DNA of 64,000 bases from the IMG/VR virus record IMGVR_UViG_3300020183_000012, positions 1-64,000 of that record; one strand, 5' to 3'. The position numbers were made by a program, and so were the translations under genes. The DNA is from a virus. The notes below the pieces were generated by a model. The model saw only the letters and a list, made by a program, of their open reading frames with translations, had not been told where the DNA came from and did no database searches. Shown here piece after piece: positions 4,506 to 29,216 of this stretch (position 1 is its first letter; each line of letters begins with the position of its first letter).

Positions 4506-5549
4506 ATGATTAAACCAAACTTATACATGTTTCAATGGATATCGGATTTAGGTGGTGCGGATACAAGACTAAAAGAATTAATTGTTCTCTTGAAGAATGA
4601 TTTTAGTATAACTTGTGTTCCAAACGATGATTTTAGGTTAAAGGAAAAAGAAAACACTGATTTTCTTGACTCTCATGGCGTTAAGTATTCCTTGATGTCT
4701 GATTTACCTGCAAAGCTAGAGGGCTTTGCTTACGCAAATTGTAATTTTAGATTATTTTCAGAAAAGCATAGGATAGATTTTATAAATAAATCTGGTTTGA
4801 AATTTTTATGGTCTAATGACATGATGTGGACTGACAGGGAGGAGTTGGCTGCTATATCAGCAGGTAAGGTTGATTGCGTGCTATTTACTTCCCCTTTCCA
4901 TCAGAGTGTTTTAGAGAACTCTATTCTGCGTGCTAATGTCTCTCAAAAAATGGCAATTCTTGAGAACTTCTTTGACTCTTCTACTTGGCCCTACGTAAAA
5001 AGACAAAAGCGAGATTTTGTTGCATGTGGAAAAGTAAGCAGACCAGATATAATGAAATTCTCCGAGGATTTCCCAGTTTTCTATGAAAGTGTCACACAGG
5101 GTATGCCTGTACATTTCCATGTAATGGGATGGAGTGACGAATTAAAAGAGAAATATAATTGGTTTAATTTCTCTCCAGATAAATGGAAGCTATTGAATTC
5201 CAATAGTATACCAACTCAAAATTGGTTTAGTTTTCTTGATATATTCCTTTATAATTGCAACTTTAGGTTTATAGAGAATCAGAGCAGGGCAATTATAGAG
5301 GCTCAGTTGACAGGTTGTCCTGTGGTCGCTCCTGATAAATGGAATTTTCCAAATATGATTTGGGATCAAAGAACCGGTTTCTTATGGAGAAATTCATCAG
5401 AACTTAGAGATATAATGAAAGACCTCATGGATTACGATTTTAGGAATAAATATGGTAAGCTTGCTAGCGAGTGCACTAGGGATCTCTGGTGTGATGTAGG
5501 CGCAGCCAAGAGAAAATGGTATAAAGTTTTGGACTACGTGTTGAATTAA
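4506..5549 (+). CDS. GT-B fold glycosyltransferase (GT4-like)
   Basis: The 347-aa protein shows the GT4/GT1-type C-terminal signature around residues 256-290: a run ending in E-N-Q-S-R-A-I-I-E-A-Q-L-T-G-C-P-V-V-A, in which the family's E-x7-E-type donor-binding region is recognisable, followed by a G-F-L-W strand. The N-terminal half begins with a Rossmann-like element (QWISDLGGADTRLKELI). It would transfer a sugar from a nucleotide donor; donor and acceptor are unknown. It opens the sugar island and is followed 12 bases later by another transferase with its own AAAGGAG site, so the two are probably cotranscribed. Confidence 0.7.
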   Translation: MIKPNLYMFQWISDLGGADTRLKELIVLLKNDFSITCVPNDDFRLKEKENTDFLDSHGVKYSLMSDLPAKLEGFAYANCNFRLFSEKHRIDFINKSGLKFLWSNDMMWTDREELAAISAGKVDCVLFTSPFHQSVLENSILRANVSQKMAILENFFDSSTWPYVKRQKRDFVACGKVSRPDIMKFSEDFPVFYESVTQGMPVHFHVMGWSDELKEKYNWFNFSPDKWKLLNSNSIPTQNWFSFLDIFLYNCNFRFIENQSRAIIEAQLTGCPVVAPDKWNFPNMIWDQRTGFLWRNSSELRDIMKDLMDYDFRNKYGKLASECTRDLWCDVGAAKRKWYKVLDYVLN

Positions 5550-5561
5550 AGGAGAAAATAA

Positions 5562-6686
5562 ATGAAAACATTGATTTGGTCGGTAGCTTGGGGTGAATAT
5601 AGGTATATGCTGCAGAGTCTTATGTCATCTATAAGATCTGTTGGTATTGAGCATGATATATTGACTTTTTCTGATCAGCCGCTTTCTCAGGTAATATCTT
5701 GCGAAATGGACAAGAGCATTCATCTTGACGGCACTCAGTATTGGAAGTTTGAATATCTTAATAAGGTAGCTCAATTGGATTACGATGTTCTTGTTTTCAT
5801 AGACAGCGATCATTATTTTGTGCGTAAGCCAAGACTGGATTTCCACGAAATGCTGGCAGGAGATCCTTGGCATTCTTTCCTTGAGTCTCCCCTTAACAGT
5901 CCAATTACTTCAAGGGCTGATTGGTGGCAGGTTAAAAACGAAGACATGGTTAAAATGTGGAGAGATTTCGGAGTTCATCAAAAGACAGTTTATAACACAA
6001 ATGGAGGTTTCTGGGTTTGCAAAAGAGAATTTGCAAGACAGGCTAAGGACACTGTTTATCTTTTCAGAGATATGCAGTCAAAAAAGGGTTTAAATTTACC
6101 AGAAGAAGTTCCTATCGGTGTTCTTTCTCATATGTTTAGTATGGATTATAACAAGAGACTTCATCAAAATTTATATGACATATGGGCAAGCGAATGGACT
6201 GGTGCATTAAAAGATAGATTGCCCGATGGAAATCAATGGGAATTTAATGAATACATGACTGGTAAGAAATTTATGGTCAACCCATCTATTGTCCATGCAA
6301 TGAGAAGCAAAAACGCTTTGGTTCAAAATGGAAGGCAAATTTTTGAAAAAACCAAAGATGAAAGAAAGTTTATGACATGGGAGGAAATAAAATCTATGGT
6401 AAATTCTAATGTTGCTATGAGGTCTAATGTTCCTGCTGGTTCTGTAGTAATAGAAGATCAAACAAAGAAGCCATCTAGTAGTTCCTCTAAGGACTGCGGT
6501 TGTGGCAGGAAGAAGAAGTCTTCAAATAAGTTTAAGAACCAAGAGGTTTCTGCAGCTAATACTGATGTTGTTGTGAGTGATTCACTGCAAAGTATGCATG
6601 AGTCTATCCCAGTAGAAGGGGTCGTAGTTGATCCTATAGTGTCTCCAGCTATGACAGAAAAAAAAATGGCCAACAGCGTAGTTTAA
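5562..6686 (+). CDS. GT-A-like glycosyltransferase with Cys/Lys-rich tail
   Basis: The 374-aa protein has a GT-A type N-terminal domain with the metal/nucleotide-sugar motif D81-S-D83 in VFIDSDHYF, a conserved YNTNGGFWVCKREFA segment (acceptor-side loop), and a VNPSIVHAMR region. From about residue 295 it switches to a low-complexity tail with SSSSS, then C-G-C-G-R-K-K-K-S-S, then an acidic/Val-rich end. That tail is not part of known transferase folds and could be a metal-binding or interaction element. A good RBS (AAAGGAG) lies 8 bases upstream. A strong hairpin terminator follows at 6715. Confidence 0.65.
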   Translation: MKTLIWSVAWGEYRYMLQSLMSSIRSVGIEHDILTFSDQPLSQVISCEMDKSIHLDGTQYWKFEYLNKVAQLDYDVLVFIDSDHYFVRKPRLDFHEMLAGDPWHSFLESPLNSPITSRADWWQVKNEDMVKMWRDFGVHQKTVYNTNGGFWVCKREFARQAKDTVYLFRDMQSKKGLNLPEEVPIGVLSHMFSMDYNKRLHQNLYDIWASEWTGALKDRLPDGNQWEFNEYMTGKKFMVNPSIVHAMRSKNALVQNGRQIFEKTKDERKFMTWEEIKSMVNSNVAMRSNVPAGSVVIEDQTKKPSSSSSKDCGCGRKKKSSNKFKNQEVSAANTDVVVSDSLQSMHESIPVEGVVVDPIVSPAMTEKKMANSVV

Positions 6687-6714
6687 CGCTTAGTCAAGAA
6701 AATATCTCATATAG

Positions 6715-6832: not shown

Positions 6833-7969
6833 TTATGTTCTTATAAGTCTGTGCATCATGTTGTCAGATAAAAGAAACTTTCCTTCAAACTTATTGTCAT
6901 TTACCTTTTTGAGTATACTTGTTGGTTTCTTTTCTTTATTATATATGTAGATGGAATTTTCTTTGTATTCCCAAAATCTTTCATTATCATTTGAGTATAT
7001 CCCTATTGTCCCGTCTGCATTCAATCTCATCATGCCGTATGTCTTTCCATTTCCAGAGAACTTCCATGTGTTGCCGGATAGACTTTCTGCGCTTTCTTCC
7101 CTGTTTGTGTTTATATTACCAGAAAGATATTTTTTTGTTTCCTCTTCATTGCTAAAAACAATATTTTCTTTCATAGCTTTTTTGAATGGCTCAAAATTTT
7201 TCCACTTGTCAGTTACATAGTGTATATGGGAATATCTACCGTTTTTATTTATACAGCTGTATGATTGAGCCCATTCAAAAGGACATAAAAAATAAGCCTC
7301 TACAATTGGTACTTTTGCTAGTCTTGCTGCCACATATGGTGTCTGATCAGTAAAAATTGGTTTAGTGTTTTTGCAAAGTTTGTAATACTCTTCTATTCTT
7401 TTCCAATTTTTTATTCTTTTTATCCCAGATTTTGATATTATTGTTGGCTCCCATGCATGTGTAAAGTATGGTATTCCTTCAAAATTTGTTATATCATTTG
7501 ACTCAAAAAAGAAATTATCTATTTTCATAGATTTCAAAATTCTTTGTTGTCCACTTTCTAAATCTGTATTTCTTCCACCCATAAGCATCATTGGATCATT
7601 AAAGTCGTAATATTGATTTAGTATCTCAACTGTTTTGTCTATATCCGTACTTGAGTCGTCATCAACCTGCATTACCCAGCTTGAGTTATTGTCAAAATCT
7701 TTTAGATATTTTAAAAACCTCATACTCATGGGTATGCCAGGACAATTATACCATATGTCTTTTTGTGGTATAAAATCCGGTCTTGGCTCGTCTTCTACAA
7801 GATAAACGAATCTTGTCTTTATTAATTTGTCCTTTTGCTTATATCCATAGGAAGATACGTATTCCCTAAGCCTTGCTGCATATTTTTCTTTTTTTGTACA
7901 AGCAACAATACATAGTGTAAAATCAAATATATTCTCATTCATATTAAATAACTTTCCGATAAAATTCAT
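6833..7969 (-). CDS. GT-A glycosyltransferase with C-terminal beta domain
   Basis: The 378-aa protein has a GT-A domain with the DxD-type motif D103-D-D105 in MQVDDDSSTD and a HAWEPTIISKSGIKRIK acceptor-side segment. From about residue 300 an extra domain begins (GNTWKFSGNGKTYG...LNADGTIGIYSNDNERFWEY). This small beta domain resembles the 'G-x-W-x-F...NERFWE' modules appended to other bacterial glycosyltransferases; its role is unknown. The ATG at 7969 is preceded on the minus strand by TGACGATAAATTTAT directly before the start; MNENIF at residue 10 is an alternative start. Confidence 0.65.
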   Translation of the reverse strand: MNFIGKLFNMNENIFDFTLCIVACTKKEKYAARLREYVSSYGYKQKDKLIKTRFVYLVEDEPRPDFIPQKDIWYNCPGIPMSMRFLKYLKDFDNNSSWVMQVDDDSSTDIDKTVEILNQYYDFNDPMMLMGGRNTDLESGQQRILKSMKIDNFFFESNDITNFEGIPYFTHAWEPTIISKSGIKRIKNWKRIEEYYKLCKNTKPIFTDQTPYVAARLAKVPIVEAYFLCPFEWAQSYSCINKNGRYSHIHYVTDKWKNFEPFKKAMKENIVFSNEEETKKYLSGNINTNREESAESLSGNTWKFSGNGKTYGMMRLNADGTIGIYSNDNERFWEYKENSIYIYNKEKKPTSILKKVNDNKFEGKFLLSDNMMHRLIRT

Positions 7970-7996: not shown

Positions 7997-8929
7997 ATGA
8001 AATTCAATAAAAGAATAAAAATAAATAAATCAAAAATTGATAGCAAGAAGAAAAAAGATGCTTCTGCTTATTTTGATAATTTAAGAAAAAATATAAAAAA
8101 AAATAAGCCAGTTAAAAATAAAAGCATAAACAAAAAAAATAATTTATTTACAAAAAGTGAAAAATCAAGGGCAAATGCTGTTTGTTTGATAGGCTTTCCG
8201 GAATATGCCTGTTCCTCTTTTGACTCTATATATGAAAATATAATAAAACCCAATAAGGCTGTCGTTTTCGCACATATTTGGACTAACGGATATGAAGCTA
8301 AATTACCTAAGGTTGAAAGTTTGTTAAAATCTGTAAAAGCGATTTATCACATGCAGCCTCAAAATAGAGAAATATATGATACTTCTTTTGTAAAGGGATG
8401 CTGGTATAACAAAAGAAAAACAGGTCCTCTTTCTTTTCCTCCAAACGTGTTTGGGCAATTTGACAGCGCAAACAGGGTAATGAATCTAATAAAAAAATAT
8501 GAAAAATCCAATAATAAATTCGATTGGATATTTAAGAGTAGATTTGATATGCATTTTCTTCATTCTATTATAATGAAAAATTATGAAAAAAATAATAATA
8601 AAATTGAAGAAATTCATGCAAGGCCAAATCCATATCCGTGGATGTTTCAAGATTTTGCTTTTTTTGGAACATCAAAAGCCATGCATTTGTGGGGAAAGTC
8701 TATTGTAAATATTAAAAAAATATACACAAAACACGATGCTGCTTTTAATCAAGAATCTCTTTGGAGTAAAAACTGGGAGTTAAATGGAATAAAAATAGTT
8801 CCACATTCAGAATGGAATTTTCACGCTACTAAAAGATCAGATACATGCCATTTATGTAGAGGTATAGAACACGAGCCCAAGCCGTATAATGCAAAAAATC
8901 CAAGTAACCATACATGGGAGCTTAAATAG
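7997..8929 (+). CDS. Probable glycosyltransferase with SRFD motif
   Basis: The 310-aa protein starts with about 55 Lys/Asn-rich residues, then a hydrophobic beta-strand start (VCLIGFPEYACSSFDSIYENI). It carries FDWIFKSRFDMHFLH (about residues 175-190) and a downstream FQDFAFFGTSKAMHLW segment. The S-R-F-D motif at the end of a beta strand takes the place of DxD in a class of GT-A-like capsule/LPS transferases, and the gene at 23883 has the same FISRFDLIY element. Function is inferred from these motifs and from the surrounding sugar genes. Confidence 0.5.
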   Translation: MKFNKRIKINKSKIDSKKKKDASAYFDNLRKNIKKNKPVKNKSINKKNNLFTKSEKSRANAVCLIGFPEYACSSFDSIYENIIKPNKAVVFAHIWTNGYEAKLPKVESLLKSVKAIYHMQPQNREIYDTSFVKGCWYNKRKTGPLSFPPNVFGQFDSANRVMNLIKKYEKSNNKFDWIFKSRFDMHFLHSIIMKNYEKNNNKIEEIHARPNPYPWMFQDFAFFGTSKAMHLWGKSIVNIKKIYTKHDAAFNQESLWSKNWELNGIKIVPHSEWNFHATKRSDTCHLCRGIEHEPKPYNAKNPSNHTWELK

Positions 8930-8965
8930 TGAAGGTTTTATGGTTTATTTATGGTATAAATTTAT

Positions 8966-10525
8966 ATGTTTCGCAAGTTTAATTTATTCAAATTTTCTGC
9001 AATAAAGCCAAGTCTTATATTTTTACCTGCGAATCTTTCGCCAATAAAAGTTGACACATACGCAGTAATTGGTCAAACATTTTCTATAAAAGAAAAAATA
9101 AAATCTTTGGGTTTCTCTTGGTCTGGGAACCTTCAAGTTTCTGTTGATGGAGAAGATGTTTCTGGTGGATGGATTCAGGGCGCAAGCAGAATATCTTCTA
9201 TAGATTTAATAAAAAAATCTCTTTCAGATATTTCAGTTGATGTAAACTTGGTCAACACTCATAAAATTGAGTCTATAGCTTTATCAAATGATGGCATAAC
9301 CGGATTCTTTGATTCATCCTCAAATTCTACTGTTATTTCAGGAGAAACTAAGCCAATAAAAGATACACTTTCTGCCATGGGTTTTGGATTTAAAAAAACA
9401 ATTTATCCTGGTCCTGACAACAAAAAGTATTCACCTGTTTGGGCTAAAAGATTTAAATTAAATAAAGAAGAGTTTGAAAAATTAGTTGGTCTTGGTGTAA
9501 ATTTTATAAATGAAGTTATTGAGGAAGTTAATGAGGACACTGATGTCAAGCAGGCATCTCAAATAAGAGGTGAAATACTTTCAAATAATACTACTTTTGG
9601 CATTTCTTCTATGATAGAAAATTTTGTCAATGAAATATCAGAAAAGATTTTCTCAAAAGATACTGATGCAAAAGTAGAGGCATTGAAAAAATTCCTAAAT
9701 TTTCAAGCTGTTTTTAATCACTTTAGTTTCAATAATCAAATACTTATGTATCTTCAGGATCCTGAAGCTAGTGAGGTTGCAACGGCATCTCAATGGGATT
9801 CTGATTTTGGAAGAAAGCTAAAGCCAGGTGCTATTCCTGTTGTGCTTATTAGGCCTGTTGGTACTGTAATTAAGCTAACAGATAAAGAAAAGGCTTCTTT
9901 ACGAGCTCAGGGTGTTCCTGAGCCTGTAATAAAAAGAAAAGACAATAGAGTTATAAATGTATCTAAATTTACAGATTATGTTGTATATGACGTTCGTTTC
10001 ACTGAGCCAATACCTGGAAGGGACCACTACGATCCTTCTAAAAATCAAGAAATTTACGGAACTAATGATACTTCTGAGTATGTAGATAAAATGACAGAGG
10101 CAGTGATTGATGTGGCAGAGGAAGATTACAAAATAAAAGTTAATTTTGCTGGTCAGGGTAAGTCTATGGGTACTTCTCATTCTGATGGCAACATAAATAT
10201 AAATTCAAACTCTTCTGGAGTAAGGGCTCTTTCAACAATAATACATGAAATGACACATGAAATAGTGCATACTCAAGAATACAGAAAAAAAAGAGACATA
10301 AAATCATATGCAGCTGGTGAGATACAGGCAGAGGGTATATCTTATATGGTTTTGAAATATTTTAAAATTCCTTTTGATTTTGAGCAGTCTTGCATTCTTT
10401 ATATGAGGATGTGGTCAAAAATGGAAAAAGAAGAGGTTGTTAACTCTCTTAAAAGTGTAAGAAATGAAGCAAACGAAATAATAGAAAAAATAAAAATCAG
10501 GATGTCAAAACAGGGTATTATGTAA
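8966..10525 (+). CDS. ArdC-type antirestriction metalloprotease-like protein
   Basis: The 519-aa protein has three parts. The N-terminal region contains two related copies (about residues 30-75 and 105-150) of the 'V-x-G-x-T-x-x-I-K-x-x-L-x-x-x-G-F-x-W' module seen in phage and plasmid DNA-processing proteins. Residues about 230-330 resemble the ArdC N-terminal ssDNA-binding domain (FNNQILMYLQDPEAS...W...GRKLKPGAIPVVLIRPV). The C-terminal part is a zinc protease core H427-E-M-T-H431-E with a later E in GEIQAEGISY as the probable third ligand. ArdC proteins protect incoming DNA from restriction. Its start (MFRKFNLFKFSA) resembles the NLFK/NWYK tag of other proteins here. TATAAATTTAT abuts the ATG and no Shine-Dalgarno is seen. 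Confidence 0.7.
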   Translation: MFRKFNLFKFSAIKPSLIFLPANLSPIKVDTYAVIGQTFSIKEKIKSLGFSWSGNLQVSVDGEDVSGGWIQGASRISSIDLIKKSLSDISVDVNLVNTHKIESIALSNDGITGFFDSSSNSTVISGETKPIKDTLSAMGFGFKKTIYPGPDNKKYSPVWAKRFKLNKEEFEKLVGLGVNFINEVIEEVNEDTDVKQASQIRGEILSNNTTFGISSMIENFVNEISEKIFSKDTDAKVEALKKFLNFQAVFNHFSFNNQILMYLQDPEASEVATASQWDSDFGRKLKPGAIPVVLIRPVGTVIKLTDKEKASLRAQGVPEPVIKRKDNRVINVSKFTDYVVYDVRFTEPIPGRDHYDPSKNQEIYGTNDTSEYVDKMTEAVIDVAEEDYKIKVNFAGQGKSMGTSHSDGNININSNSSGVRALSTIIHEMTHEIVHTQEYRKKRDIKSYAAGEIQAEGISYMVLKYFKIPFDFEQSCILYMRMWSKMEKEEVVNSLKSVRNEANEIIEKIKIRMSKQGIM

Positions 10526-10569: not shown

Positions 10570-12399
10570 ATGGCCACAAAAATTTGGAAACCTTGCAATG
10601 CAGTTACTTCAAGTTCTAGCTACAGCGGAAACACATCTGGATGTACTAATTTTCAATGGCAAGAAGCATCCAACTGGAGTGATGGTTCTGTACCTCAGCA
10701 GGGTGATGATATAGTTTTTTCTCCTAATTACAATTATCCTTGCGTGGGAGGACCAGGCGATGATCGTCCTTTTAAAACCATAACAATTCAAAAAGGTTTT
10801 AATAGGCCAATAGGTCAGCTAAAAAGTCCTAACGAACCATTGAGTTTAACTGCTTTGCAGGTTAACTTCGGTGATCTTATAATATATAGGCCAAATGCAA
10901 GCGAAGCTAAGCAGATATCTGCTCCAATAGTTATTGATAGGCTGTGTTCTAGTGTTCCTTCTGATTACCCTGGAGGTAGCAATAACCCACCAAATTTGTA
11001 TGGCCCAATAACTGGAGGAAGAATCTATGTTTACGATGAGAATGAAGATAATGTAAGTTCTTATTATTTTTCTGGGCATTCTAGATTGATTCTCTTTGTT
11101 TGTAAAGATAATAAAAATTTGTCAAATAAAACTTTTGTATATGATGACCCAAACGGTAGGGTTAGTCAAATTTCTACTGCTTATAGCATAAGCTCTACTG
11201 GTCCGGAACCAGTAGTTAACAATACTCGCCATAGAAACAAAATTTCTGTTACCGCAGATTACATAGGAAACCTTAGTTTTAATACTCTTTCCTATGCTAA
11301 TGTAAGAGCTTCTTATATAGAGCAAATTTGGCTTTTGGGGTCGTCGCATGCTTCATGGGGGGTTAAAGACAGAAAGCCATTTACTAGTTATTTGCAGCTT
11401 GATGGCATACCAGAACAGGTTGATTCTGCTTTAACTCCTGGAGATATAACCGTAGCATATAGTAAGGAACTTTTTGTAGGTAATATAAATATTGGCAAAC
11501 CTACTGGGGGTGCTTCTTTAATAGGAAATCCAGCGACTCAGGGTTGGGATTGGACAAAGCCAGAAAATTGGGAGTGGACACACGGTATTGAGTTACGCAG
11601 TGGCATTAAGGCGATCAAAATGATCATGTCCTATCATCCTGTTGGAAGGATTAGTGCTGAAAGCTACTCCAAACCTGTTGGTTTCAGAATTGGCAGGTTG
11701 CAGTTTATCAGGAGCAATTTAAATTTTGGATCATCTAGTCAGTTTAATATGACTAATTCCAGGCAGACTATGAATTTTGTAGGTGTAAATGGAGTGGGCG
11801 CAATAATTGATCAGATTTATTTTCAGGTTACTACTCCTGATATACAATATAATGGCAGGTATTTAGACATAAACGTTCCGGCAACATCTCAATTTAAATT
11901 GTGGCACCATACTCCAGTGCAGGGTGATACCCTGCAAGATTTGGCTCCACACGGATCTATATACAACGAAACTACTGGAACATATTCAGACGGAGTATCA
12001 GATTATAGTTCAAGTTCTTCTATATCGCCGTGTCTCTGGTCAAGTAGTTCTAGTTCTTCAAGTAGCCGTAGTTCTTCTAGCAGTAGTAGTAGTTCTGGAT
12101 CAAGCAGCAGTAGCTTATCAAGCAGTAGTAGTAGCTCAAGCAGTAGAGCTAGCAGCAGCAGCAGCAGCAGCCGTTCCAGTAGTAGTAGTAGTGTCACATT
12201 TATTCCTGGAGAAACCGTAGATATCGCTCCGCCATTCAGGAGAAGTAGTAGCTCGTCTTCCAGTAGCAGTAGTAGTCAGTCCAGCAGTAGTAGTAGCAGT
12301 AGTAGCAATTCCAGCAGTAGTAGTCAGTCCAGCAGTAGTAGTAGCAGTAGTAGTCATTCCAGCAGTAGCAGCATGTCAAGTAGTTCAAGTAATGGATAA
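10570..12399 (+). CDS. Large surface/virion adhesin-like protein with poly-Ser C-terminus
   Basis: The 609-aa protein begins with W-x-EASNWSDGSVPQQGDDIVF, the 'NWS-G-x-P-x-x-G-D' motif found at the start of beta-helix and autotransporter-type adhesin repeats. The middle is beta-rich with many Gly/Asn/Tyr. Residues about 478-609 are dominated by serine runs broken by single Arg, Gly, Gln, His or Asn, plus a short FIPGETVDIAPPFRR insert. A good RBS (GGAGAT) precedes the ATG. I infer a tail-fibre or capsid-decoration protein whose serine tail could be a linker or an O-glycosylation target of the surrounding glycosyltransferases. The neighbouring gene has the same N-terminal motif. Confidence 0.6.
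   Translation: MATKIWKPCNAVTSSSSYSGNTSGCTNFQWQEASNWSDGSVPQQGDDIVFSPNYNYPCVGGPGDDRPFKTITIQKGFNRPIGQLKSPNEPLSLTALQVNFGDLIIYRPNASEAKQISAPIVIDRLCSSVPSDYPGGSNNPPNLYGPITGGRIYVYDENEDNVSSYYFSGHSRLILFVCKDNKNLSNKTFVYDDPNGRVSQISTAYSISSTGPEPVVNNTRHRNKISVTADYIGNLSFNTLSYANVRASYIEQIWLLGSSHASWGVKDRKPFTSYLQLDGIPEQVDSALTPGDITVAYSKELFVGNINIGKPTGGASLIGNPATQGWDWTKPENWEWTHGIELRSGIKAIKMIMSYHPVGRISAESYSKPVGFRIGRLQFIRSNLNFGSSSQFNMTNSRQTMNFVGVNGVGAIIDQIYFQVTTPDIQYNGRYLDINVPATSQFKLWHHTPVQGDTLQDLAPHGSIYNETTGTYSDGVSDYSSSSSISPCLWSSSSSSSSSRSSSSSSSSSGSSSSSLSSSSSSSSSRASSSSSSSRSSSSSSVTFIPGETVDIAPPFRRSSSSSSSSSSSQSSSSSSSSSNSSSSSQSSSSSSSSSHSSSSSMSSSSSNG
12007..12397 (+). repeat. Serine-codon low-complexity tract (AGT/AGC/TCA arrays)
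   Basis: Tandem AGT/AGC triplets, with related units such as CAGTCCAGCAGTAGTAGT recurring several times between about 12240 and 12380, encode the poly-Ser C-terminus. Triplet slippage here would change tail length without shifting frame. The tract is interrupted by unique sequence at about 12190-12240. Confidence 0.8.
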
Positions 12400-22047: not shown

Positions 22048-22702
22048 AAGATACCTAATGAATTATAATGAGTTCATAAAAGATTTAGTCAATATTCCAG
22101 ATATAAAGATGAACCCCTTAAATTATGTACTAGAAAATAAAGATATTTTAGAGGTGAATAAGGATTCCATTGTCATGGAACTGGGAGTTTTTAGCGGGAT
22201 GACAATCAATATGATTGCAAATGGATTCAAAAATCATAAAATTTATGGATTTGATAGTTGGCAAGGGTTGCCTGAGAAATGGGATAGAAATGATATGCTT
22301 TTTGACAAGGGTTCTTTTTCCACAAATGGCAAATACCCAAATGTATCAGAAAACGTGATTTTGATAGACGGGTGGTTTTCTGAAACTTTGCCTAATTTTA
22401 TATCTAATCATAACAAACCAATAAAATTTATGCACGTTGATTGTGATATATATAGCTCTACAAAAGATGTATTTGACAACTTAAAATTTAATATAAAAAA
22501 TGGTTGTGTAGTTGTATTCGATGAATTAGTCAACTATGAGGGTTATCAGAGAAATGGAGAATTAAAGGCTTTTTACGAATTTATTAAAAATAATAAAGTA
22601 GAATTTGAATATATAGGAATGAACGGCAAGATGGGAGATGTGGGGTGTGGTCATGAAAGGGTTGCTGTAAAGATAATAAATAATCCAACATATAAAAAAT
22701 GA
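22037..22702 (+). CDS. TylF/MycF-type SAM-dependent O-methyltransferase
   Basis: The 221-aa protein has VMELGVFSGMTINMIA (SAM loop), IYGFDSWQGLPEKWD, VILIDGWFSETLP, IKFMHVDCDIYSSTKDVFDNL and GCVVVFDELVNYEG, the pattern of the TylF/macrocin O-methyltransferase family, with metal-binding acidic residues in HVDCD and FDE. It probably methylates a sugar hydroxyl. I use the TTG at 22037 because AAAGGAG lies 6 bases upstream; the ATG at 22058 is too far from that site. It overlaps glf by 11 bases and the next gene by ATGA. Confidence 0.75.
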   Translation: MKNKRYLMNYNEFIKDLVNIPDIKMNPLNYVLENKDILEVNKDSIVMELGVFSGMTINMIANGFKNHKIYGFDSWQGLPEKWDRNDMLFDKGSFSTNGKYPNVSENVILIDGWFSETLPNFISNHNKPIKFMHVDCDIYSSTKDVFDNLKFNIKNGCVVVFDELVNYEGYQRNGELKAFYEFIKNNKVEFEYIGMNGKMGDVGCGHERVAVKIINNPTYKK

Positions 22703-23847
22703 AAGAAATAAAAGTAAAATACATAACAGGTAAGAAAATAGTTTTTTGGTTTGATGGAACAAGTCCTAGAGCGTGTCGTTTTAATTATGAAAATTATACA
22801 GATGTATGTGGATTCAGCGGCACTTGTGCTGTTACTTTAGAGTTAGCTAGGAAATTAGCTGAAAGTAAAAATACAGTATATATTTCTCATCCTGATTATG
22901 GTTTAAAAAACACATTTATACCAGGAAATTCTGAGTTTAACGGATATCTTAATTATACTTATGTGACGCCTGACGAGGATTTATTAAAAGATTGCGATGT
23001 ATTTGTTTTTTCTTTTGGTTTTTTTTGTAAAGATTCCTATGATATATTATCTAAACTAAAAGAGGGTACAATAGTTTGTGCCTTTTCTCATATGTACTGG
23101 TCTCATAGTGCTATTTTTGATATACATAATTATTGCAAATCAAAAAAATTAAATTTTTATTATATAGTAAATTCTAAAACTTCAAAAAAACATTTTATAT
23201 CTAACCCCTCTGAGGTAAAGTATATTCATGTAAATAATAGTATATCAAAACCATTATTTTATGAAGAAATAAACAAGCATGAAAATTTAGAAAGAAAAAA
23301 TCAAATTATTTTTACATCTTCTTTTCAAAGAGGCGGTGAAATGGCAAGCTTAATAGCTAGTCATTTAGGCAAAAATTATGTAAATTTTTCTTATTTACCT
23401 GGTCCTCATGGCAGTGGATCTGTAGGGAAAAAAGAATTAATTAAAAATTTATGTGAATCAGATTATTTTGTGTATACAGCATCTGATATGGAGGGAAATT
23501 TTCCAACAGACACTTATTGTAATGCAGTTCACGAGGCCTTAGCTTGTGGAGTAATTGTTTTAACCTGGGACATTTCTTGTTTTAAAGATGTGTATGGAGA
23601 TAATATTGTTATACTAGATTTTCCTATACTAGATTTTCCTTTTGATCCAAAGTCTTTGGGCGTAGGCCTTCATACTATAAAAAAACTGATAGATCCATTT
23701 GAGTATCTAAAATTTGCAGAAAAAATTAAAGAAATAGATATCAATACATCTCTTAAAAACACCTTAAGAGATAAGGGAAAAAAATGGGCTTTATCAAATA
23801 CTTATGATATAGAATATAAAAACTTTTTAAGGATTTTTGAAAATTAA
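22699..23847 (+). CDS. GT-B (GT4-like) glycosyltransferase
   Basis: The 382-aa protein has an N-terminal VFWFDGTS...GFSGTCAVTLELARKLAE segment (the 'G-G...A..La' start of GT4 enzymes). Its C-terminal Rossmann half has IIFTSSFQRGGE, CESDYFVYTASDMEGNFPTDTYCNAVHEALACGVIVLTWDISC, where the E-A-L-A-C-G motif marks the donor site. An in-frame 15-base tandem duplication gives I-L-D-F-P twice near residue 305. It overlaps the methyltransferase by ATGA. Confidence 0.65.
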   Translation: MKEIKVKYITGKKIVFWFDGTSPRACRFNYENYTDVCGFSGTCAVTLELARKLAESKNTVYISHPDYGLKNTFIPGNSEFNGYLNYTYVTPDEDLLKDCDVFVFSFGFFCKDSYDILSKLKEGTIVCAFSHMYWSHSAIFDIHNYCKSKKLNFYYIVNSKTSKKHFISNPSEVKYIHVNNSISKPLFYEEINKHENLERKNQIIFTSSFQRGGEMASLIASHLGKNYVNFSYLPGPHGSGSVGKKELIKNLCESDYFVYTASDMEGNFPTDTYCNAVHEALACGVIVLTWDISCFKDVYGDNIVILDFPILDFPFDPKSLGVGLHTIKKLIDPFEYLKFAEKIKEIDINTSLKNTLRDKGKKWALSNTYDIEYKNFLRIFEN

Positions 23848-23882: not shown

Positions 23883-24629
23883 ATGAATAAAAAATGTGCA
23901 ATATTATTAAGGGGTCACACAAAAAGAATAAGAGGATCTAATGTGATTTTTGAGGATCCTATAAATTTTGATTTTTCTAGAGGCGCTCTAAAATCTTTTA
24001 TAGATTCTGTCTATATGCCTTTCAGTAATATGTATGATGTGGATTGTTATTTTTCTGTTTCTGATGATTATAATATAGATTTAATCAAAAGTAATTTCCC
24101 TAATTGCAAATACTCTTTATGTGTTCACTATGATTGGTCTGCACAAAGATTGAATATGTTAAATGGTTTGCATAATATCTATCAAAGTGAAATTATTTAT
24201 GATAAAATTTTTATATCTAGATTTGATTTAATATATAAAAAAAATATAAATTGTTTTATAAATGACATGAATAGCAATATTGTTTATCAGTGGGCTGAAT
24301 ATCCAGTTACTCCCAACAGAGTTCCTGACGCAATACACTGGATAAACAATGATAAAAGTAATGATGTATTTAGTAAATTTATAAAATCTATTGAATATCA
24401 TGAACCTAATGGAAGTTTTCATGATCTAAAAAATATAACAGATCAATTGGGCATGAGTAGCTCTTTTATGATTGACGGATATTATGATGCTAACACCTCC
24501 AGACATCCTGATAATCATGGAAAAGGATTAAATTTATCCAAAAATCCTATATATGTGATGAGTGGTAGGAGATATTTTTTTGATGATTTTACGCATGATA
24601 GTTTATATGAAGGTGATTGGTCATGTTAA
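23883..24629 (+). CDS. Probable glycosyltransferase with SRFD motif
   Basis: The 248-aa protein begins CAILLRGHTKRI, and contains YDKIFISRFDLIYKKNIN (about 110-127), the same S-R-F-D strand end seen in the protein at 7997, then IVYQWAEYP and a late GMSSSFMIDGY. These are features of a GT-A-like group in capsule clusters. No DxD is present. It starts after a 35-base gap, the first break in the overlap chain from 20067. Confidence 0.5.
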   Translation: MNKKCAILLRGHTKRIRGSNVIFEDPINFDFSRGALKSFIDSVYMPFSNMYDVDCYFSVSDDYNIDLIKSNFPNCKYSLCVHYDWSAQRLNMLNGLHNIYQSEIIYDKIFISRFDLIYKKNINCFINDMNSNIVYQWAEYPVTPNRVPDAIHWINNDKSNDVFSKFIKSIEYHEPNGSFHDLKNITDQLGMSSSFMIDGYYDANTSRHPDNHGKGLNLSKNPIYVMSGRRYFFDDFTHDSLYEGDWSC

Positions 24630-24693: not shown

Positions 24694-25383
24694 ATGAAAA
24701 AAATAGCTGTAATTTGTCCTTCTAGGTCAAGACCTAATAACATAAAAGAAGTCATTATTAGTTTTAATGATTGTAAAAGTTCTTTGTCGGATATTTATTT
24801 TGTTATTGATAGTGATGATACTAGTAATTATGAAAAATACACAAGCAATATTGGTATAATAAAATATGAAAAAAATAATGATTCTAGAGGAGTAGTTGCG
24901 CCCATGAATTATGCTGCATGTAAATTGTCAAAACAGTATGAATATTTATATTTCATGGGAGACGATCATAGATTTAGGACTAAGGATTGGGATAATATTT
25001 TTGTTGAAAACATGAATGCAATGGACAATATTGGAGTGATATATCCCAATGACCTAATGCATGGGTCTATGTTAGCAAGTTCACATTTAATTTCTTCCAA
25101 TATAGTAAAAATTTTAGGTCATTTTTATAATCCTATTTTTACGCATTTGTGTAGTGACAATTCAATAATGAGCATAGGACACGGACTTAATAGAATCAAA
25201 TATTTGGAAAATGTTGTTATAGAGCATTTGCATCCTTTTTCTGGTAAGAGTCAGTGGGATGATCTGTACAGAACTGTTAATTCAGAAAATATGAATAAAA
25301 AGGATAGAGAGGCTTGGCACAATTGGTCTCAAAATATTTATCCTCATGAAATAGAGAAATTAAAAAAAGAGTTAAAAATATGA
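24694..25383 (+). CDS. GT2-like glycosyltransferase
   Basis: The 229-aa protein has the GT-A start IAVICPSRSRPNNIKEVI (the 'P-S-R-x-R' motif), FVIDSDD, the divalent-metal motif G89-D-D91-H in YLYFMGDDHRF, and a late W-x-D-L segment. This is the layout of GT2-type enzymes. RBS GAGGA lies 6 bases before the ATG. It overlaps the next gene by ATGA. Confidence 0.6.
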   Translation: MKKIAVICPSRSRPNNIKEVIISFNDCKSSLSDIYFVIDSDDTSNYEKYTSNIGIIKYEKNNDSRGVVAPMNYAACKLSKQYEYLYFMGDDHRFRTKDWDNIFVENMNAMDNIGVIYPNDLMHGSMLASSHLISSNIVKILGHFYNPIFTHLCSDNSIMSIGHGLNRIKYLENVVIEHLHPFSGKSQWDDLYRTVNSENMNKKDREAWHNWSQNIYPHEIEKLKKELKI

Positions 25384-26030
25384 AAAAAATAATATCTTTT
25401 AGCTTGTGGGGCTATGATCCCAAGTATTGTGTAGGCGCTATTAAAAATTTAGAATTAGCTAAGTCTATATATAGTGATTGGATATGTAGATTCTATTATG
25501 GTAAAAAAACAGATCAAGATTGTATAGGTGTTTTGAGAAATAAAGAAAATGTAGAATTAATACCAGTTAATGAGGATGGAGATTGGTCTGGAATGTTTTG
25601 GAGGTTTTTTGCAGGAGATAGTAATGATATAGTTATATTTAGGGATACAGATTCCAGGTTAAATACTAGAGAGAAAGAAGCTGTTGACGACTGGTTAAAT
25701 TCTGAATATGATTTTCATGTTATGAGAGATCATCCTTGGCACCAGACTGAGATTTTAGGAGGCATGTGGGGATGCAGAAATGGGGTATTAAAAGGAATTT
25801 CTAATACGATTGAAAAATATCAAAAAGGTAATTTTTATCAAGTTGATCAAAACTTTTTGCGCTCTCATGTTCACCATTTAACATTAAATAATTGTAAAAT
25901 ACATGATGAATTTTTTAATATTAATCATTTTCCTTCAAAAAGAAAAGGAAGAGAGTTTGTGGGACAACCCTTTAATGCTGATGATACAGAATGTGACAGA
26001 ATACATGGAGATTTAGTAGTAGGAAGGTAG
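25380..26030 (+). CDS. GT-A-like glycosyltransferase with FRDTDSR motif
   Basis: The 216-aa protein has IISFSLWGYDPKYCVGAIKN at its start, the metal motif R88-D-T-D91-S-R in IVIFRDTDSR, then HVMRDHPWHQTEILGGMWGCRNG, a pattern I associate with small GT-A enzymes of surface-glycan loci. The G-G-M-W-G-C loop would be the acceptor side. The ATGA overlap with the upstream gene shows coupling. Confidence 0.6.
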   Translation: MKKIISFSLWGYDPKYCVGAIKNLELAKSIYSDWICRFYYGKKTDQDCIGVLRNKENVELIPVNEDGDWSGMFWRFFAGDSNDIVIFRDTDSRLNTREKEAVDDWLNSEYDFHVMRDHPWHQTEILGGMWGCRNGVLKGISNTIEKYQKGNFYQVDQNFLRSHVHHLTLNNCKIHDEFFNINHFPSKRKGREFVGQPFNADDTECDRIHGDLVVGR

Positions 26031-26037
26031 TTTTTAT

Positions 26038-26934
26038 ATGGCATTTGCAATTGAACAACATCACAACAAATTAGAAGTGTACTTTGACGGGAACAGCATT
26101 TATTGTCATGAGTATTGGTGTTACGAGAGTAGGGGTAGAATGAGTTCTTATTTGATAAATGAGGCTTTTAGCAATTTAAATAATGATGAAAAAAACAGAA
26201 TGAATGTAGGATCTGTATTTTTGTTTATGGGCGATTATTTAGATTATCCATTATCTTTTTCTGGTCCTTCATATAATGATTTTATGATACCTGATTATAT
26301 CTTTGCGGGTTGGCCAGAGACAGGAATTCATGATTATGATGATATGTGCAAAAGAATTCGTTTAAAATCTATTGAAAATTATATTGATGATCGTTTATTT
26401 TGGATAGGAAATATAAATACACATCATACTAGAAGAAAATTTTATGAAAATTTTAATAAAAATTTAAAAGTCAAATGCATAGATATAATTCAGTGGGTAA
26501 AACAGTCTGGAACAATTGAACTGAAAACAGAAAATGGCAATTTTATTTCTCTTCCTGATCATACTAATTATAAATTTTTGATAGATATACAGGGTGCTGG
26601 TTATTCAGGTAGAACTAAACTACTTTTGCATTCTAATAGGCCATTGTTTTATCAATTGAGAAAATGCAATGAATATTGGTTTTATGATTTGAGGCCTTTT
26701 GAACATTATATCCCTGTAAATGAAGATTTCTCTGATTTTGAAGATAAATTAAACTGGGCACATAAAAATGAAAATAAATGTAAAGAAATATCCAAAAATG
26801 CATTTGATTATGCTGATAAAAACTTAAGAAAATCGAATGCAGTTGATAGGTATAAAAAAGTTTTAATTAAAGCATTTTCTATTAAAGATAATTTAATTAG
26901 TCCTAGTGAATATATGTTAAAAAGATTAAAATGA
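26038..26934 (+). CDS. GT90 (CAP10/LpsA-like) glycosyltransferase
   Basis: The 298-aa protein resembles the GT90 family: FAGWPETGIHDYDDM and LFWIGNINTHHTRRKF in the middle, then NYKFLIDIQGAGYSGRTKLLLHSNRPLFYQ (about 178-206) and EYWFYDLRPFEHYIPVNEDFSD, which is the family's 'D-x-x-G-x-x-x-S-x-R-x-x-x-L-L-x-S' and 'W-F-x-x-L-x-P-x-x-H-Y-I-P-V' signature. GT90 enzymes transfer xylose, glucose or mannose-type sugars in fungi, animals and some bacterial LPS loci. It overlaps the next gene by ATGA. Confidence 0.75.
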   Translation: MAFAIEQHHNKLEVYFDGNSIYCHEYWCYESRGRMSSYLINEAFSNLNNDEKNRMNVGSVFLFMGDYLDYPLSFSGPSYNDFMIPDYIFAGWPETGIHDYDDMCKRIRLKSIENYIDDRLFWIGNINTHHTRRKFYENFNKNLKVKCIDIIQWVKQSGTIELKTENGNFISLPDHTNYKFLIDIQGAGYSGRTKLLLHSNRPLFYQLRKCNEYWFYDLRPFEHYIPVNEDFSDFEDKLNWAHKNENKCKEISKNAFDYADKNLRKSNAVDRYKKVLIKAFSIKDNLISPSEYMLKRLK

Positions 26935-27572
26935 AAATATTATTCTTAATCATTTCATGTGAAAATCACATTAATACCAGACAAAATTGGTTAAAAAACA
27001 CGTGGCTTAATAATTTGGACTATATTTTTTTATCTGACATTGATAGTACTGACAATGTTTGTGTAACTAGGACAAAGGGTCATATTAGCGGTGAGGAAAA
27101 ACAAATTATGGGTATTGATTACGCAAATAAGTCAAATAATTATGATTGGTATTTTTTTTGTGATGATGATACATATGTTAATACTAAAAATCTTATTAGT
27201 CATATCGGATGTTTAGATAATAGTTGCAATAGTTGTGGTCTTGTTTTTTCTGAAGAAACTCATCCTGATAATCCTATATGGCCTTACGTTGAAAAGGGGC
27301 ATAGGTACTATTCTGGTGGTTCTGGATTTGCATTAAGAAAAGACTTGATAAATCGAATTAATAGTAAAATAAATATTCCCAAGACTAATTACGGAGATGT
27401 TACATTAGGATATTATCTTAAGGGAGAAAAGCTGTATAGCTCTAATAGATTTAATCAAAATAATTATTTACACTTGAAACATGATTTACATCAAATTAAA
27501 CATAATATAAGTTATCATTATATGAATGAAAAAATGATGAAAGAAATTAATAGCATATGCAAAGAAAAATAA
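26931..27572 (+). CDS. Fringe/C1GALT-like (GT31-type) glycosyltransferase
   Basis: The 213-aa protein has NTRQNWLKNTWLN (the 'R-x-x-W-x-x-T-W' start of galactosyltransferase families), the metal motif D78-D-D80-T in WYFFCDDDTYVN, HRYYSGGSGFALRKDLI and NYGDVTLGYYLKG, ending in ISYHYM. This ordered set is that of Fringe and core-1 beta-1,3-galactosyltransferases. It would make a beta-1,3 linkage; donor unknown. The E/D-D-V-x-x-G catalytic-loop acid is present. Confidence 0.7.
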   Translation: MKILFLIISCENHINTRQNWLKNTWLNNLDYIFLSDIDSTDNVCVTRTKGHISGEEKQIMGIDYANKSNNYDWYFFCDDDTYVNTKNLISHIGCLDNSCNSCGLVFSEETHPDNPIWPYVEKGHRYYSGGSGFALRKDLINRINSKINIPKTNYGDVTLGYYLKGEKLYSSNRFNQNNYLHLKHDLHQIKHNISYHYMNEKMMKEINSICKEK

Positions 27573-27606: not shown

Positions 27607-27763
27607 ATGAAATATTATAGTCAATACGGAGAAGAATTATTTTTTACAATCATATTTTAATAATAAAAAAGATGGTTTTTGTGTTGAAAGAGCGTTTATA
27701 AAATGCGATAATGAGATTGTGGTATGGGGCTTAGGTCAAGCTTTTAATTATGAAGATAGCTAA
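27607..27763 (+). pseudogene. Mosaic remnant: FkbM-type methyltransferase start joined to a glycosyltransferase fragment
   Basis: An ATG with a GGAGAT site begins MKYYSQYGEELFF, the usual start of FkbM-type methyltransferases, then hits a frameshift. In the next frame the reading resumes QSYFNNKKDGFCVE and continues RAFIKCDNEIVVWGLGQAFNYEDS, which is almost identical to residues 28-50 of the protein at 28365. The join falls at a shared V-E-R/L-E-R codon run, so recombination at microhomology fused two gene pieces. It is too short and broken to be functional. Confidence 0.65.
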
Positions 27764-27792
27764 TTTGAACCAAAACATGGAGATATGCTAAT

Positions 27793-28368
27793 ATGAAAAT
27801 AGTACAGATAGGTACTAATACGGGTAATGATGATTTGAGTAAGTTGATTCAAGATAATCAGCCAGACTTGTTACTTCTTGTAGAACCAATGAAAATTCAT
27901 AATGAAAAAATTGAAGACCAATATAAATGGGTCAAGAACAAAGTTATAGAAAACATAGCCATAACTACAGAAAGCAGTAGTGAACAAGAAACTTCATTCT
28001 TTTATCACAAAAACGATGGCCCATTATATGAGGTTGCATCTATAGACCGATACCATATCTTGAAACATGGTTATCATCCAGAAGGAATAGTGGAAATTAG
28101 GGTTGAATGTAAAACTATTAATGCTCTTTTTGAAAAATATAATCTTCAACAAATAAATATTTTATTTATAGATGCAGAGGGACTTGACGATCAGATCATC
28201 AAGTCTATAGATTTTTCAAAGTTTAAAATTAATGAGATTTACTTTGAAAACTTGCATTTAAAAAATCAAGATATTTATGAATATTTGAACAAACTTGGCT
28301 ATTTCATTATTGAAAAAGTAGGTATGAATGGGTGGAGTTCTTTAGCAAAGAAAAATAATACGAGATGA
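27793..28368 (+). CDS. FkbM-family methyltransferase-like protein
   Basis: The 191-aa protein has VQIGTNTGNDDL (SAM loop I), LLLLVEPMKIHNEKI, SIDRYHIL, an INILFIDAEGLDDQIIKSIDF segment and EIYFENLHL, matching the C-terminal signature of FkbM-type methyltransferases (I-D-A/V-E-G). Such enzymes O-methylate sugars. It overlaps the following transferase by ATGA and follows the broken FkbM fragment, suggesting a duplication or replacement history. Confidence 0.7.
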   Translation: MKIVQIGTNTGNDDLSKLIQDNQPDLLLLVEPMKIHNEKIEDQYKWVKNKVIENIAITTESSSEQETSFFYHKNDGPLYEVASIDRYHILKHGYHPEGIVEIRVECKTINALFEKYNLQQINILFIDAEGLDDQIIKSIDFSKFKINEIYFENLHLKNQDIYEYLNKLGYFIIEKVGMNGWSSLAKKNNTR

Positions 28369-29216
28369 CAATCAAAATACTTCTAATACAAGAAAATGGT
28401 AGACACGAAGCAAATAGGTCATTTAGAGAATGTTTTTCTCTTGAAAGAGCGTTTATAAAATGCGATAATGAGGTTGTGGTATGGGGATTAGGTCATGCTA
28501 ATTATAATTCAAATATCAACTTTAATGAATATGATATGATATTTAACTTAGAAAATTATGGGGATGGGTGGATGCCCAATCTAAGTAATGTAGATGGTCC
28601 ATTGAAGATTTTGTGGAGTATAGACGCTCACTGTAGAGGAGTATCTCCTTATGAAAATATATTTTCTAATGGTAAATATGATTTAATGCTTCATTCTACT
28701 AAAGATTACGTAAAACATTCCTATCATATGTGGTTTCCTAATTCATTTGATAATAGCCTAATTAAACCAAATGAAACAGCTAAAAAACATAAATTTGGAT
28801 TTTGTGGCAACATAGTTAATAGGGGTCATATATTAGAAATTCTAAAAAATTCATATGGTTTGCACACAGATATATTTGTAATAGGTGAAGATATGGTTAA
28901 TGCAATAAATTCATATGTATGTCATTTTAATATGAATATAGCTAATGATATAAACTACAGATCCTTTGAAACTATAGGATGTAAAACATTATTAATAACA
29001 AACAAAAATTACCAATATGATGAGTTGGGTTTTGTGCATAATGAAAATTGCTTAATCTATGATTCTTTTGATCACTTGTATGAAATAATAAAAAATATTG
29101 ATAAATATAACATAGATCAAATTTCACAAAATGGTTATGAATTATCAAAAAACCATACTTACGATGTAAGAGTAAAAAATTTAGTCACTCAATTAAAAAA
29201 TAAAGGTTATATTTAG
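28365..29216 (+). CDS. CgeB-like GT-B glycosyltransferase
   Basis: The 283-aa protein starts IKILLIQENGRHEANRSFRECFSLERAFIKC, has LKILWSIDAHCRG, KYDLMLHSTKDYVK and FGFCGNIVNRG, then NYRSFETIGCKTLLITNKN...DELGFVHNENCLIYDSFDHLYE, the donor-binding end seen in the CgeB/'glycosyl transferase 1-2' group. Part of its N-terminus (residues 28-50) is duplicated in the remnant at 27607. It is the last plus-strand gene of the sugar island and converges with the next gene with a 4-base overlap. Confidence 0.65.
   Translation: MTIKILLIQENGRHEANRSFRECFSLERAFIKCDNEVVVWGLGHANYNSNINFNEYDMIFNLENYGDGWMPNLSNVDGPLKILWSIDAHCRGVSPYENIFSNGKYDLMLHSTKDYVKHSYHMWFPNSFDNSLIKPNETAKKHKFGFCGNIVNRGHILEILKNSYGLHTDIFVIGEDMVNAINSYVCHFNMNIANDINYRSFETIGCKTLLITNKNYQYDELGFVHNENCLIYDSFDHLYEIIKNIDKYNIDQISQNGYELSKNHTYDVRVKNLVTQLKNKGYI

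What the first reader, a model, noticed from the sequence alone, without database searches (positions are those of the whole stretch)
4506..29216. Sugar island of about 15 glycosyltransferases around two Ser-rich virion-like proteins
The window devotes about 25 kb to glycosyltransferases (GT4-like, CgeB-like, exostosin-like, GT7-like, GT31-like, GT90, several GT-A), UGD, UDP-Galf mutase and two methyltransferase types. In the middle lie two large proteins with poly-Ser tracts. A phage has no envelope polysaccharide to make, so modification of its own virion proteins (serine O-glycans) or of the host surface is the plausible use. If true this is a large phage-encoded protein-glycosylation system.
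Basis: partly seen in the sequence, partly recalled or inferred. Interest (0 to 1): 0.75.

Follow-up and report, generated by a model that had tools for sequence, protein, structure and literature searches.

The report
Phage sugar-transfer gene island
A large, incompletely sequenced phage (probably from fresh water) carries a roughly 25 kb block of enzymes that link sugars together. It most likely uses them to coat one of its own proteins with sugar, but nothing in the DNA shows which protein or surface is the target.

Summary
The gene inventory is mostly right. Window 4506-29216 holds 10 glycosyltransferases (GTs) with tool support and up to 5 more suggested by motif or weak profile links. 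It also holds a near-certain UDP-galactopyranose mutase, a truncated UDP-glucose dehydrogenase and two sugar-type methyltransferases. It lies inside a phage: ribonucleotide reductase, ThyX, endolysin and tRNAs are on the contig, and tail-fibre genes follow just past its end. A second GT cluster at 105-118 kb was not mentioned; a related phage keeps it in the same order, under purifying selection.

The link to "two Ser-rich virion proteins" is weak. Only 10570-12399 has a real poly-Ser tail (last ~130 residues); 12420-14090 has one S9 run. Neither has a detectable relative. No poly-Ser protein lies beside the same cassette in 79 other GLF-bearing phage loci.

No protein on the contig looks like a multi-pass flippase, polymerase or Gtr protein, and no ThyA-type hydroxymethylase was found. 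That argues against capsule/O-antigen synthesis and classical DNA hypermodification. GT90, GT7 and GT31 members match eukaryotic protein-O-glycosylation enzymes best. Best reading: cytosolic, stepwise glycosylation of a protein, probably a virion protein; acceptor unknown. Phage sugar clusters are known, so this is a variant of a known kind.

The parts
4506..5549 (+). GT4-like glycosyltransferase
   Evidence: Pfam Glyco_trans_1_4 E 3.1e-5, below cut-off; NCBIfam Agl16 2.4e-4
5562..6686 (+). Tentative GT-A enzyme (DSD-like motif by eye), short SSSSS run
   Evidence: No family match; motif read from the sequence
6833..7969 (-). Tentative GT (DDD motif), lipocalin-like C-terminus
   Evidence: Pfam Fringe 0.022 and Lipocalin_4 0.006, both weak
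7997..8929 (+). Tentative GT-like protein, phrog_13607 family
   Evidence: phrog_13607 1.3e-9; profile match to L003:5974-6711 prob 97.7 and to 23883-24629 prob 80
8966..10525 (+). Zincin-like (M78/IrrE-type) metallopeptidase-domain protein, upstream of A
   Evidence: Peptidase_M78 22.6 bits, cut-off 22
10570..12399 (+). Protein A: orphan 609 aa with poly-Ser C-terminal tail (last ~130 aa)
   Evidence: Ser runs S5-S11; no homologue except its own copy; structure not modelled
12420..14090 (+). Protein B: orphan 556 aa with one S9 run
   Evidence: no match in phages; not alignable to A
14097..14630 (-). SpoU-type RNA methylase (not a sugar gene)
   Evidence: SpoU_methylase 5.9e-24
14668..15426 (-). 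NADPH-dependent FMN-reductase-like protein (not a sugar gene)
   Evidence: FMN_red 6.8e-7
16392..17840 (-). Truncated nucleotide-sugar dehydrogenase (UGD-like) with a ~190-aa N-terminal methyltransferase-like extension; no UDP-binding C-terminal domain
   Evidence: UDPG_MGDP_dh 4e-19 and _N 1.4e-18; TIGR03026 151.5 bits vs cut-off 189.8; GGTCFPKD active-site Cys aligned to 7kws
17827..18651 (-). Tentative GT-B enzyme
   Evidence: Profile match to the CgeB-type GT 28365-29216, prob 85; no family match
18648..19331 (-). Glycosyltransferase (phrog_1579)
   Evidence: 6.2e-11
19328..20026 (-). GT7, beta-1,4-galactosyltransferase type
   Evidence: Glyco_transf_7C 1.2e-21 and 7N 6e-19; best PDB beta4GalT7 2.5e-33; HDVD and GWGxED invariant in relatives
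20067..20957 (+). Glycosyltransferase (phrog_4447; GT31-like)
   Evidence: 6e-8; Galactosyl_T 0.022
20938..22047 (+). UDP-galactopyranose mutase (GLF)
   Evidence: GLF 1.6e-78; 1i8t 2.1e-144
22037..22702 (+). TylF-like O-methyltransferase
   Evidence: Methyltransf_24 4.4e-12, TylF 4e-11
22699..23847 (+). Weak GT4-like enzyme
   Evidence: Glycos_transf_1 0.0076
23883..24629 (+). Tentative GT-like protein
   Evidence: 38% relative directly after GLF in L017; profile link to 7997-8929
24694..25383 (+). GT-A enzyme, weakly TAGT-like
   Evidence: TAGT 9.7e-5, below cut-off
25380..26030 (+). GT-A enzyme without a Pfam or PHROG family; recurrent partner of GLF in phages
   Evidence: AF2 pLDDT 88; Foldseek 7.9e-7 to PBCV-1 A064R domain; VIA Z 14.2 KfiA; homologue in 17 of 79 GLF loci
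26038..26934 (+). GT90 (protein O-glucosyltransferase / rumi type)
   Evidence: 1.1e-25; POGLUT2, rumi and POGLUT1 at 2e-9 to 6e-9
26931..27572 (+). GT31 (Fringe / core-1 galactosyltransferase type)
   Evidence: Fringe 3.1e-11; C1GalT1 2.4e-5
27793..28368 (+). FkbM-type methyltransferase
   Evidence: 3.6e-12
28365..29216 (+). CgeB-type glycosyltransferase
   Evidence: Glyco_trans_1_2 1.3e-11

Best explanation
The block is a phage-encoded set for stepwise, cytosolic glycan assembly on a protein. Steps inferred: (1) GLF and possibly the truncated dehydrogenase convert host UDP-sugars into UDP-galactofuranose and UDP-glucuronate. (2) One GT, with the GT90 enzyme as the best candidate, puts the first sugar on a hydroxyl side chain of a phage protein in the infected cell. 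(3) GT7, GT31, GT-A and GT4/CgeB-type enzymes extend and branch it. (4) TylF/FkbM-type methyltransferases cap it. The most likely acceptor class is a virion surface protein; the Ser-rich tail of protein A is one candidate among several. Shown here: enzyme families, phage context, absence of multi-pass membrane proteins on the contig, recurrence of GLF-GT modules in other phages, and selection on the second GT cluster. Inferred: the order of steps, the acceptor and the biological role.
For: Ten GTs with tool support plus GLF. The GT90, GT7 and GT31 members match POGLUT/rumi, beta4GalT7 and C1GalT1 best among solved structures; these act on protein O-glycans. No protein in the 146.7 kb record has more than two hydropathic segments, and of the GT-type genes only the remote sialyltransferase-like one (132.8 kb) has any, so no Wzx/Wzy/GtrA/GtrB-like protein is visible. 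No ThyA-family gene, with positive controls ringing. Phage context is continuous, and identical in a second record; tail-fibre genes follow the right end. Cluster 2 is conserved in a related phage with dN/dS about 0.05-0.25. Precedents: mycobacteriophage Che8 capsid and tail-tube glycans at C-termini (as cited in PMC11256854 and PMC12619734), jumbo phage XacN1 glycoproteins (PMC5852040), PBCV-1 with at least eight GTs for its capsid protein (PMC7019647).
Against: No acceptor is identified. A and B are orphans, and poly-Ser does not travel with these GTs in other phages. GT families do not fix acceptor type: GT7, GT31 and GT90 also contain polysaccharide enzymes. The record lacks terminase, so the genome is incomplete and membrane or DNA-modifying genes may lie in the missing part. 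Published analysis of large phage GT clusters favours host-surface polysaccharide (PMC7824862).
Confidence: 0.48

Rival explanations
1. Host-surface remodelling: the GTs alter LPS, capsule or S-layer glycans of the infected cell, for example to exclude competing phages, as proposed for cyanophage P-SSM2-type clusters.
For: The published reading of the closest described phage clusters (15-gene P-SSM2 cluster, PMC7824862). GLF neighbours in other phages are mostly nucleotide-sugar epimerases and GTs, typical of polysaccharide loci. Galactofuranose is common in bacterial surface glycans (general knowledge).
Against: No multi-pass membrane protein and no GT-island enzyme with a transmembrane segment in 146.7 kb. 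No epimerase/dehydratase in the island. GT90/GT7/GT31 bias.
Confidence: 0.28
2. DNA hypermodification: one or more GTs glycosylate modified bases of the phage genome, and the dehydrogenase supplies uronic acid.
For: Weak TAGT (TET-associated GT) match at 24694-25383, E 9.7e-5 and below cut-off. A UGD-like gene also occurs in Bacillus phage SP-15, known for a glycosylated base (general knowledge). Phage GTs that glycosylate DNA are documented (Pyle et al. 2024, cited in PMC12619734).
Against: No ThyA-type dCMP/dUMP hydroxymethylase, with controls positive. No Tet_JBP match, though its controls were silent. More than ten diverse GTs far exceed what known base modifications use. The genome is incomplete.
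Confidence: 0.1
3. The poly-Ser tail of A is only a flexible linker or spacer, and A and B are unrelated to the GTs next to them (compatible with either reading of the GTs).
For: No poly-Ser protein beside GLF in 79 loci and one borderline in 79 GT7 loci. Cluster 2 has no Ser-rich neighbour. A and B lie in a different transcription block (+ strand, 7997-14090) from most GTs. Poly-Ser linkers that are not glycan acceptors are known from Saccharophagus degradans enzymes (from memory, not checked).
Against: A is directly adjacent to the GTs. Mixed AGY and TCN serine codons in the tail suggest selection for Ser itself rather than a simple DNA repeat. C-terminal glycans occur on mycobacteriophage virion proteins (PMC12619734).
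Confidence: 0.5

Closest known systems
Cyanophage P-SSM2-type sugar gene cluster (15 genes; Iyer et al. 2021, PMC7824862)
   Same: Large phage; more than ten sugar genes in one block; several GT families; methyltransferases in related clusters
   Different: Those carry 1-4 NAD-dependent epimerases and sugar kinases/isomerases and are read as host polysaccharide modification; here there is no epimerase, only GLF and a truncated dehydrogenase, with GT90/GT7/GT31 enzymes
Virion glycosylation of mycobacteriophage Che8 and relatives (Freeman et al. 2023, via PMC11256854 and PMC12619734)
   Same: Phage-encoded GTs near other phage genes; glycans reported at C-termini of virion proteins, comparable in position with the Ser tail of A
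   Different: Few GTs there, and a proven acceptor; here many GTs and no proven acceptor
Chlorovirus PBCV-1 capsid glycosylation (PMC7019647)
   Same: Virus-encoded cytosolic GT set of at least eight enzymes plus methyltransferase; GT 25380-26030 has Foldseek's top match in the PBCV-1 A064R GT domain
   Different: Eukaryotic NCLDV, N-glycans on Vp54; the fold match is only GT-A level (TM ~0.52; not in the top 50 of the VIA re-ranking)
Bacterial serine-rich repeat protein (SRRP) loci such as Fap1 (PMC5207161)
   Same: Ser-rich protein next to several cytosolic GTs that build an O-glycan stepwise
   Different: No GtfA/GtfB-type initiator recognised, no SecA2/SecY2, no cell-wall anchor; phage, not Gram-positive surface locus

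Membership tests
UDP-galactopyranose mutase (PF03275) | Match above curated cut-off and full-length similarity to a solved enzyme | tested here: met
   263.5 bits vs 26.3; 1i8t over residues 6-364
UDP-glucose 6-dehydrogenase | NAD-binding, central and C-terminal UDP-binding domains; TIGR03026 cut-off | tested here: not met
   NAD-binding and central domains present with active-site Cys, C-terminal domain absent, 151.5 vs 189.8 bits
GT7 (beta-1,4-galactosyltransferase) | Both Pfam halves above cut-off, DVD metal site and GWGxED motif | tested here: met
GT90 (protein O-glucosyltransferase type) | Pfam GT90 match above cut-off | tested here: met
   90.8 bits vs 24; catalytic Asp of POGLUT1 not tested, it was not covered by the alignment shown
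Phage virion glycosylation system | Glycans on purified virion proteins dependent on phage GTs | not testable with these tools
   needs virions
Phage virion glycosylation system | GT genes inside a phage genome | tested here: met
SRRP glycosylation locus | Dedicated SecA2/SecY2 export | tested here: not met
   no multi-pass membrane protein in the 146.7 kb held; genome incomplete
SRRP glycosylation locus | GtfA/GtfB initiating pair | tested here: inconclusive
   only a weak GT4-like match at 4506-5549
Wzx/Wzy capsule or O-antigen locus, or GtrABC | Multi-pass flippase/polymerase/GtrA-GtrB proteins | tested here: not met
   hydropathy scan of 231 ORFs, maximum two segments; genome incomplete
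Glycosylated-base DNA hypermodification | Base-hydroxylating enzyme of ThyA family | tested here: not met
   PF00303 absent while 9 of 14 controls rang; genome incomplete
Glycosylated-base DNA hypermodification | Base-hydroxylating enzyme of Tet/JBP family | tested here: inconclusive
   PF12851 absent but no control rang
P-SSM2-type phage polysaccharide cluster | NAD-dependent epimerase/dehydratase with GTs | tested here: not met
   no Epimerase or GDP_Man_Dehyd match among island proteins, although 16 of 142 neighbours of GLF in other phages have one

The most novel reading that the evidence does not exclude
The phage builds a Ser-linked O-glycan by a relay that resembles eukaryotic protein O-glycosylation: a GT90 initiator, a beta4GalT7-like GT7, then GT31 and galactofuranose branches. 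It builds this on the poly-Ser C-terminal tail of protein A, giving the virion a mucin-like or proteoglycan-like coat.
Probability: 0.12. Interest if true: 0.85.

Novelty: new variant of a known kind. Interest (0 to 1): 0.45.

Why it matters
If the acceptor is a virion protein, this would be among the richest sugar-coating sets described for a phage, comparable in number of GTs with the chloroviruses, in an uncultured aquatic lineage. The GT90-GT7-GT31 combination, with family ties to protein O-glycosylation and with no visible export machinery, makes phage protein glycosylation directly testable with recombinant enzymes. It also gives an unnamed GT-A family (25380-26030) that recurs beside GLF in phages.

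Tried and rejected
- Near-DNA search in phages: no match.
- tblastn for A, B and 33836-35491 in phages: no match.
- Viral scans for A, for the fused dehydrogenase and for the 551- and 816-aa proteins found only copies of this virus.
- A against 50 related or huge-phage records: nothing, without a positive control.
- A versus B: no alignment, so the idea that they are paralogues was dropped.
- AlphaFold of A without an alignment: pLDDT 29, discarded.
- N-terminal NWS..P..DD motif of A in 4269 phage ORFs: none, so 'virion-like' could not be supported that way.
- Base composition to show separate acquisition of A/B: third-position GC is similar across the block, rejected.
- Exostosin (PF03016): absent in the record, so 'exostosin-like' is not supported.
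- GT90 in bacterial genomes: no relative found by pattern scan.
- PBCV-1 A064R as a specific relative: Foldseek's top match, but not in the VIA top 50, so only GT-A fold is claimed.
- First all-against-all hhalign script timed out; a reduced set was run.
Full report
**What the record is.** The window is the first 64 kb of an IMG/VR virus record of 146,719 bases. No named phage is close at DNA level. Its ribonucleotide reductase is most like those of the huge phages LR745206 (635 kb) and LR756500 (462 kb), at 47% identity. PHROG scans find ThyX, dUTPase, a sigma factor, a tRNA nucleotidyltransferase, endolysins and a DnaB/UvsX-like ATPase. A tmRNA gene and nine tRNA genes lie at 37.7-39.8 kb. 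No terminase is present, although the same search rings in both huge phages. The genome is therefore incomplete.

Two other IMG/VR records overlap it at essentially 100% identity. G003 covers bases 1-61,722. G002 overlaps the right part and runs about 3 kb past the right end, where a tail-fibre-like protein (weak PHROG match) and a further GT gene lie. The related record G001 continues there into strong tail-fibre genes. The island is thus inside a phage and is not a host capsule locus.

**Island 1, 4506-29216.** Ten glycosyltransferases have tool support: GT4-like 4506; PHROG glycosyltransferases 18648 and 20067; GT7 19328; weak GT4-like 22699; weak TAGT-like 24694; structurally assigned GT-A 25380; GT90 26038; GT31/Fringe 26931; CgeB-type 28365. 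Five more are tentative. Of these, 17827 has a profile match to the CgeB-type enzyme (probability 85), and 7997 and 23883 belong together (probability 80), with 7997 also linked to a cluster-2 protein (probability 98). The island also has GLF, which is near certain, two methyltransferases and a truncated nucleotide-sugar dehydrogenase. That dehydrogenase keeps the active-site Cys but lacks the UDP-binding domain and falls below the curated cut-off. SpoU, FMN-reductase, SnoaL and M78-like genes are interspersed or adjacent.

**Family hints.** The GT7 protein matches beta4GalT7 best among solved structures (2.5e-33), GT90 matches POGLUT2/rumi/POGLUT1 (2e-9) and GT31 matches C1GalT1 (2e-5). In animals these act on Ser/Thr-linked glycans (general knowledge). 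GT7 metal and acceptor motifs are invariant among six phage relatives. Family membership does not prove the acceptor.

**The Ser-rich proteins.** A (10570-12399) ends in a ~130-residue tail made mostly of Ser runs, encoded by a mix of AGY and TCN codons. B (12420-14090) has one S9 run. A and B do not align to each other. Neither has a relative in the phage collection, and A has none in IMG/VR beyond its own copy or in 50 related records. PHROGs give nothing for A and one non-significant hit for B. A could not be modelled. 'Virion-like' is therefore a guess.

**Co-occurrence test.** Loci around GLF (79), GT7 (79) and, as control, ThyX (78) from other IMG/VR phages were compared. Homologues of this phage's GTs occur at 0.41, 0.16 and 0 per 10 kb. 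The 25380 family alone sits near GLF in 17 of 79 loci. Poly-Ser proteins (six or more in a row) occur in 0, 1 and 0 loci. So GLF-GT modules are a recurrent phage feature, and the Ser-rich partner is private to this virus as far as searched. GLF neighbours in other phages are mainly nucleotide-sugar epimerases and GTs; island 1 has no epimerase.

**Cluster 2.** At contig 105-118 kb there is a second set: a GT4 enzyme, a GT8-like pair, a phrog_13607 member, a Methyltransf_24 enzyme and others. A related phage, G001 (45 kb), keeps these genes in the same order at 62-87% protein identity, with dN/dS of about 0.05-0.25 (dS near saturation, so approximate). At least part of the sugar machinery is therefore maintained by selection. 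The same test is impossible for island 1, because only identical copies are known. A sialyltransferase-like protein lies at 132.8 kb.

**Where could the sugars go?** A hydropathy scan of 231 ORFs finds no protein with more than two membrane-like segments. That argues against Wzx/Wzy, GtrABC and SecY2 in the part held. ThyA-type base hydroxymethylases are absent with positive controls. Tet/JBP is also absent, but its controls were silent. Cytosolic stepwise glycosylation of a protein fits best. Phages with glycosylated virions exist (Che8 and relatives, via PMC11256854 and PMC12619734; XacN1, PMC5852040). The main published reading of large phage GT clusters is host-surface modification (PMC7824862), which remains the strongest rival.

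**Verdict.** The gene observation is largely right, and the phage context is right. The substrate claim is unproven and its Ser-tract part is weak. Large sugar clusters in phages are known; this one differs in enzyme mix, in lacking epimerases and in having two clusters. It is a variant of a known kind, of moderate interest.

Noticed in passing
contig-wide, e.g. window 37252-37548, 44430-45131, 52323-53804; L002:18108-18557; L003:14440-15120: Fifteen proteins start with a shared tag NW[YFLIK][KL] (MNWYK..A/S): 16 hits in the first 60 residues of all proteins against 1 elsewhere. The tag is kept in the related phage G001 even where the body has diverged to 42% identity. Huge phages LR745206/LR756500 show a comparable MKYLKxFEEF-like start. 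It may be a packaging or processing tag like the T4 capsid-targeting peptide.
   Followed up: partly
L002:2193-14324 (contig 86.2-98.3 kb): About 18-23 copies of a ~59-nt repeat (AAACTTTCATCGGGCAAATAAACTAA..GACAAGGAGAACC.ATG) sit directly before small ORFs: a repeated promoter-plus-ribosome-site module.
   Followed up: no
L002:14429-16724 (contig 98.4-100.7 kb): Five copies of a second repeat, GGGATACCTTAGTGGGA, some just upstream of an MNWLK-tagged gene.
   Followed up: no
L003:30-1109 (contig 104.0-105.1 kb): Protein that by eye looks like a trypsin-type protease with two dockerin-like repeats, just before the second GT cluster; relatives at 41-49% in two other phage loci.
   Followed up: no
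window 43512-44027: Small membrane protein near a LysM/lysozyme-like gene; its only phage hits include Verrucomicrobia phage P8625 (34%), a hint of a Planctomycetes/Verrucomicrobia-type host.
   Followed up: partly
window base 1: Record G003 ends at exactly the same base as this record: either a real genome end or a shared assembly break.
   Followed up: no
L004:8776-9456 (contig 132.8 kb): Sialyltransferase-like protein (phrog_4603, 4e-11), 88% conserved in G001.
   Followed up: partly
window 50000-64000 and contig 64-104 kb: G+C rises from about 0.30 to 0.40-0.49 within the window from 50 kb, and ORFs from there to about 104 kb are short and sparse, unlike both ends of the contig.
   Followed up: no
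window 624-1319 and 104-676: By eye, a TilS-like tRNA-lysidine synthetase and a deaminase-like protein at the left end, with a tmRNA and nine tRNAs at 37.7-39.8 kb.
   Followed up: no
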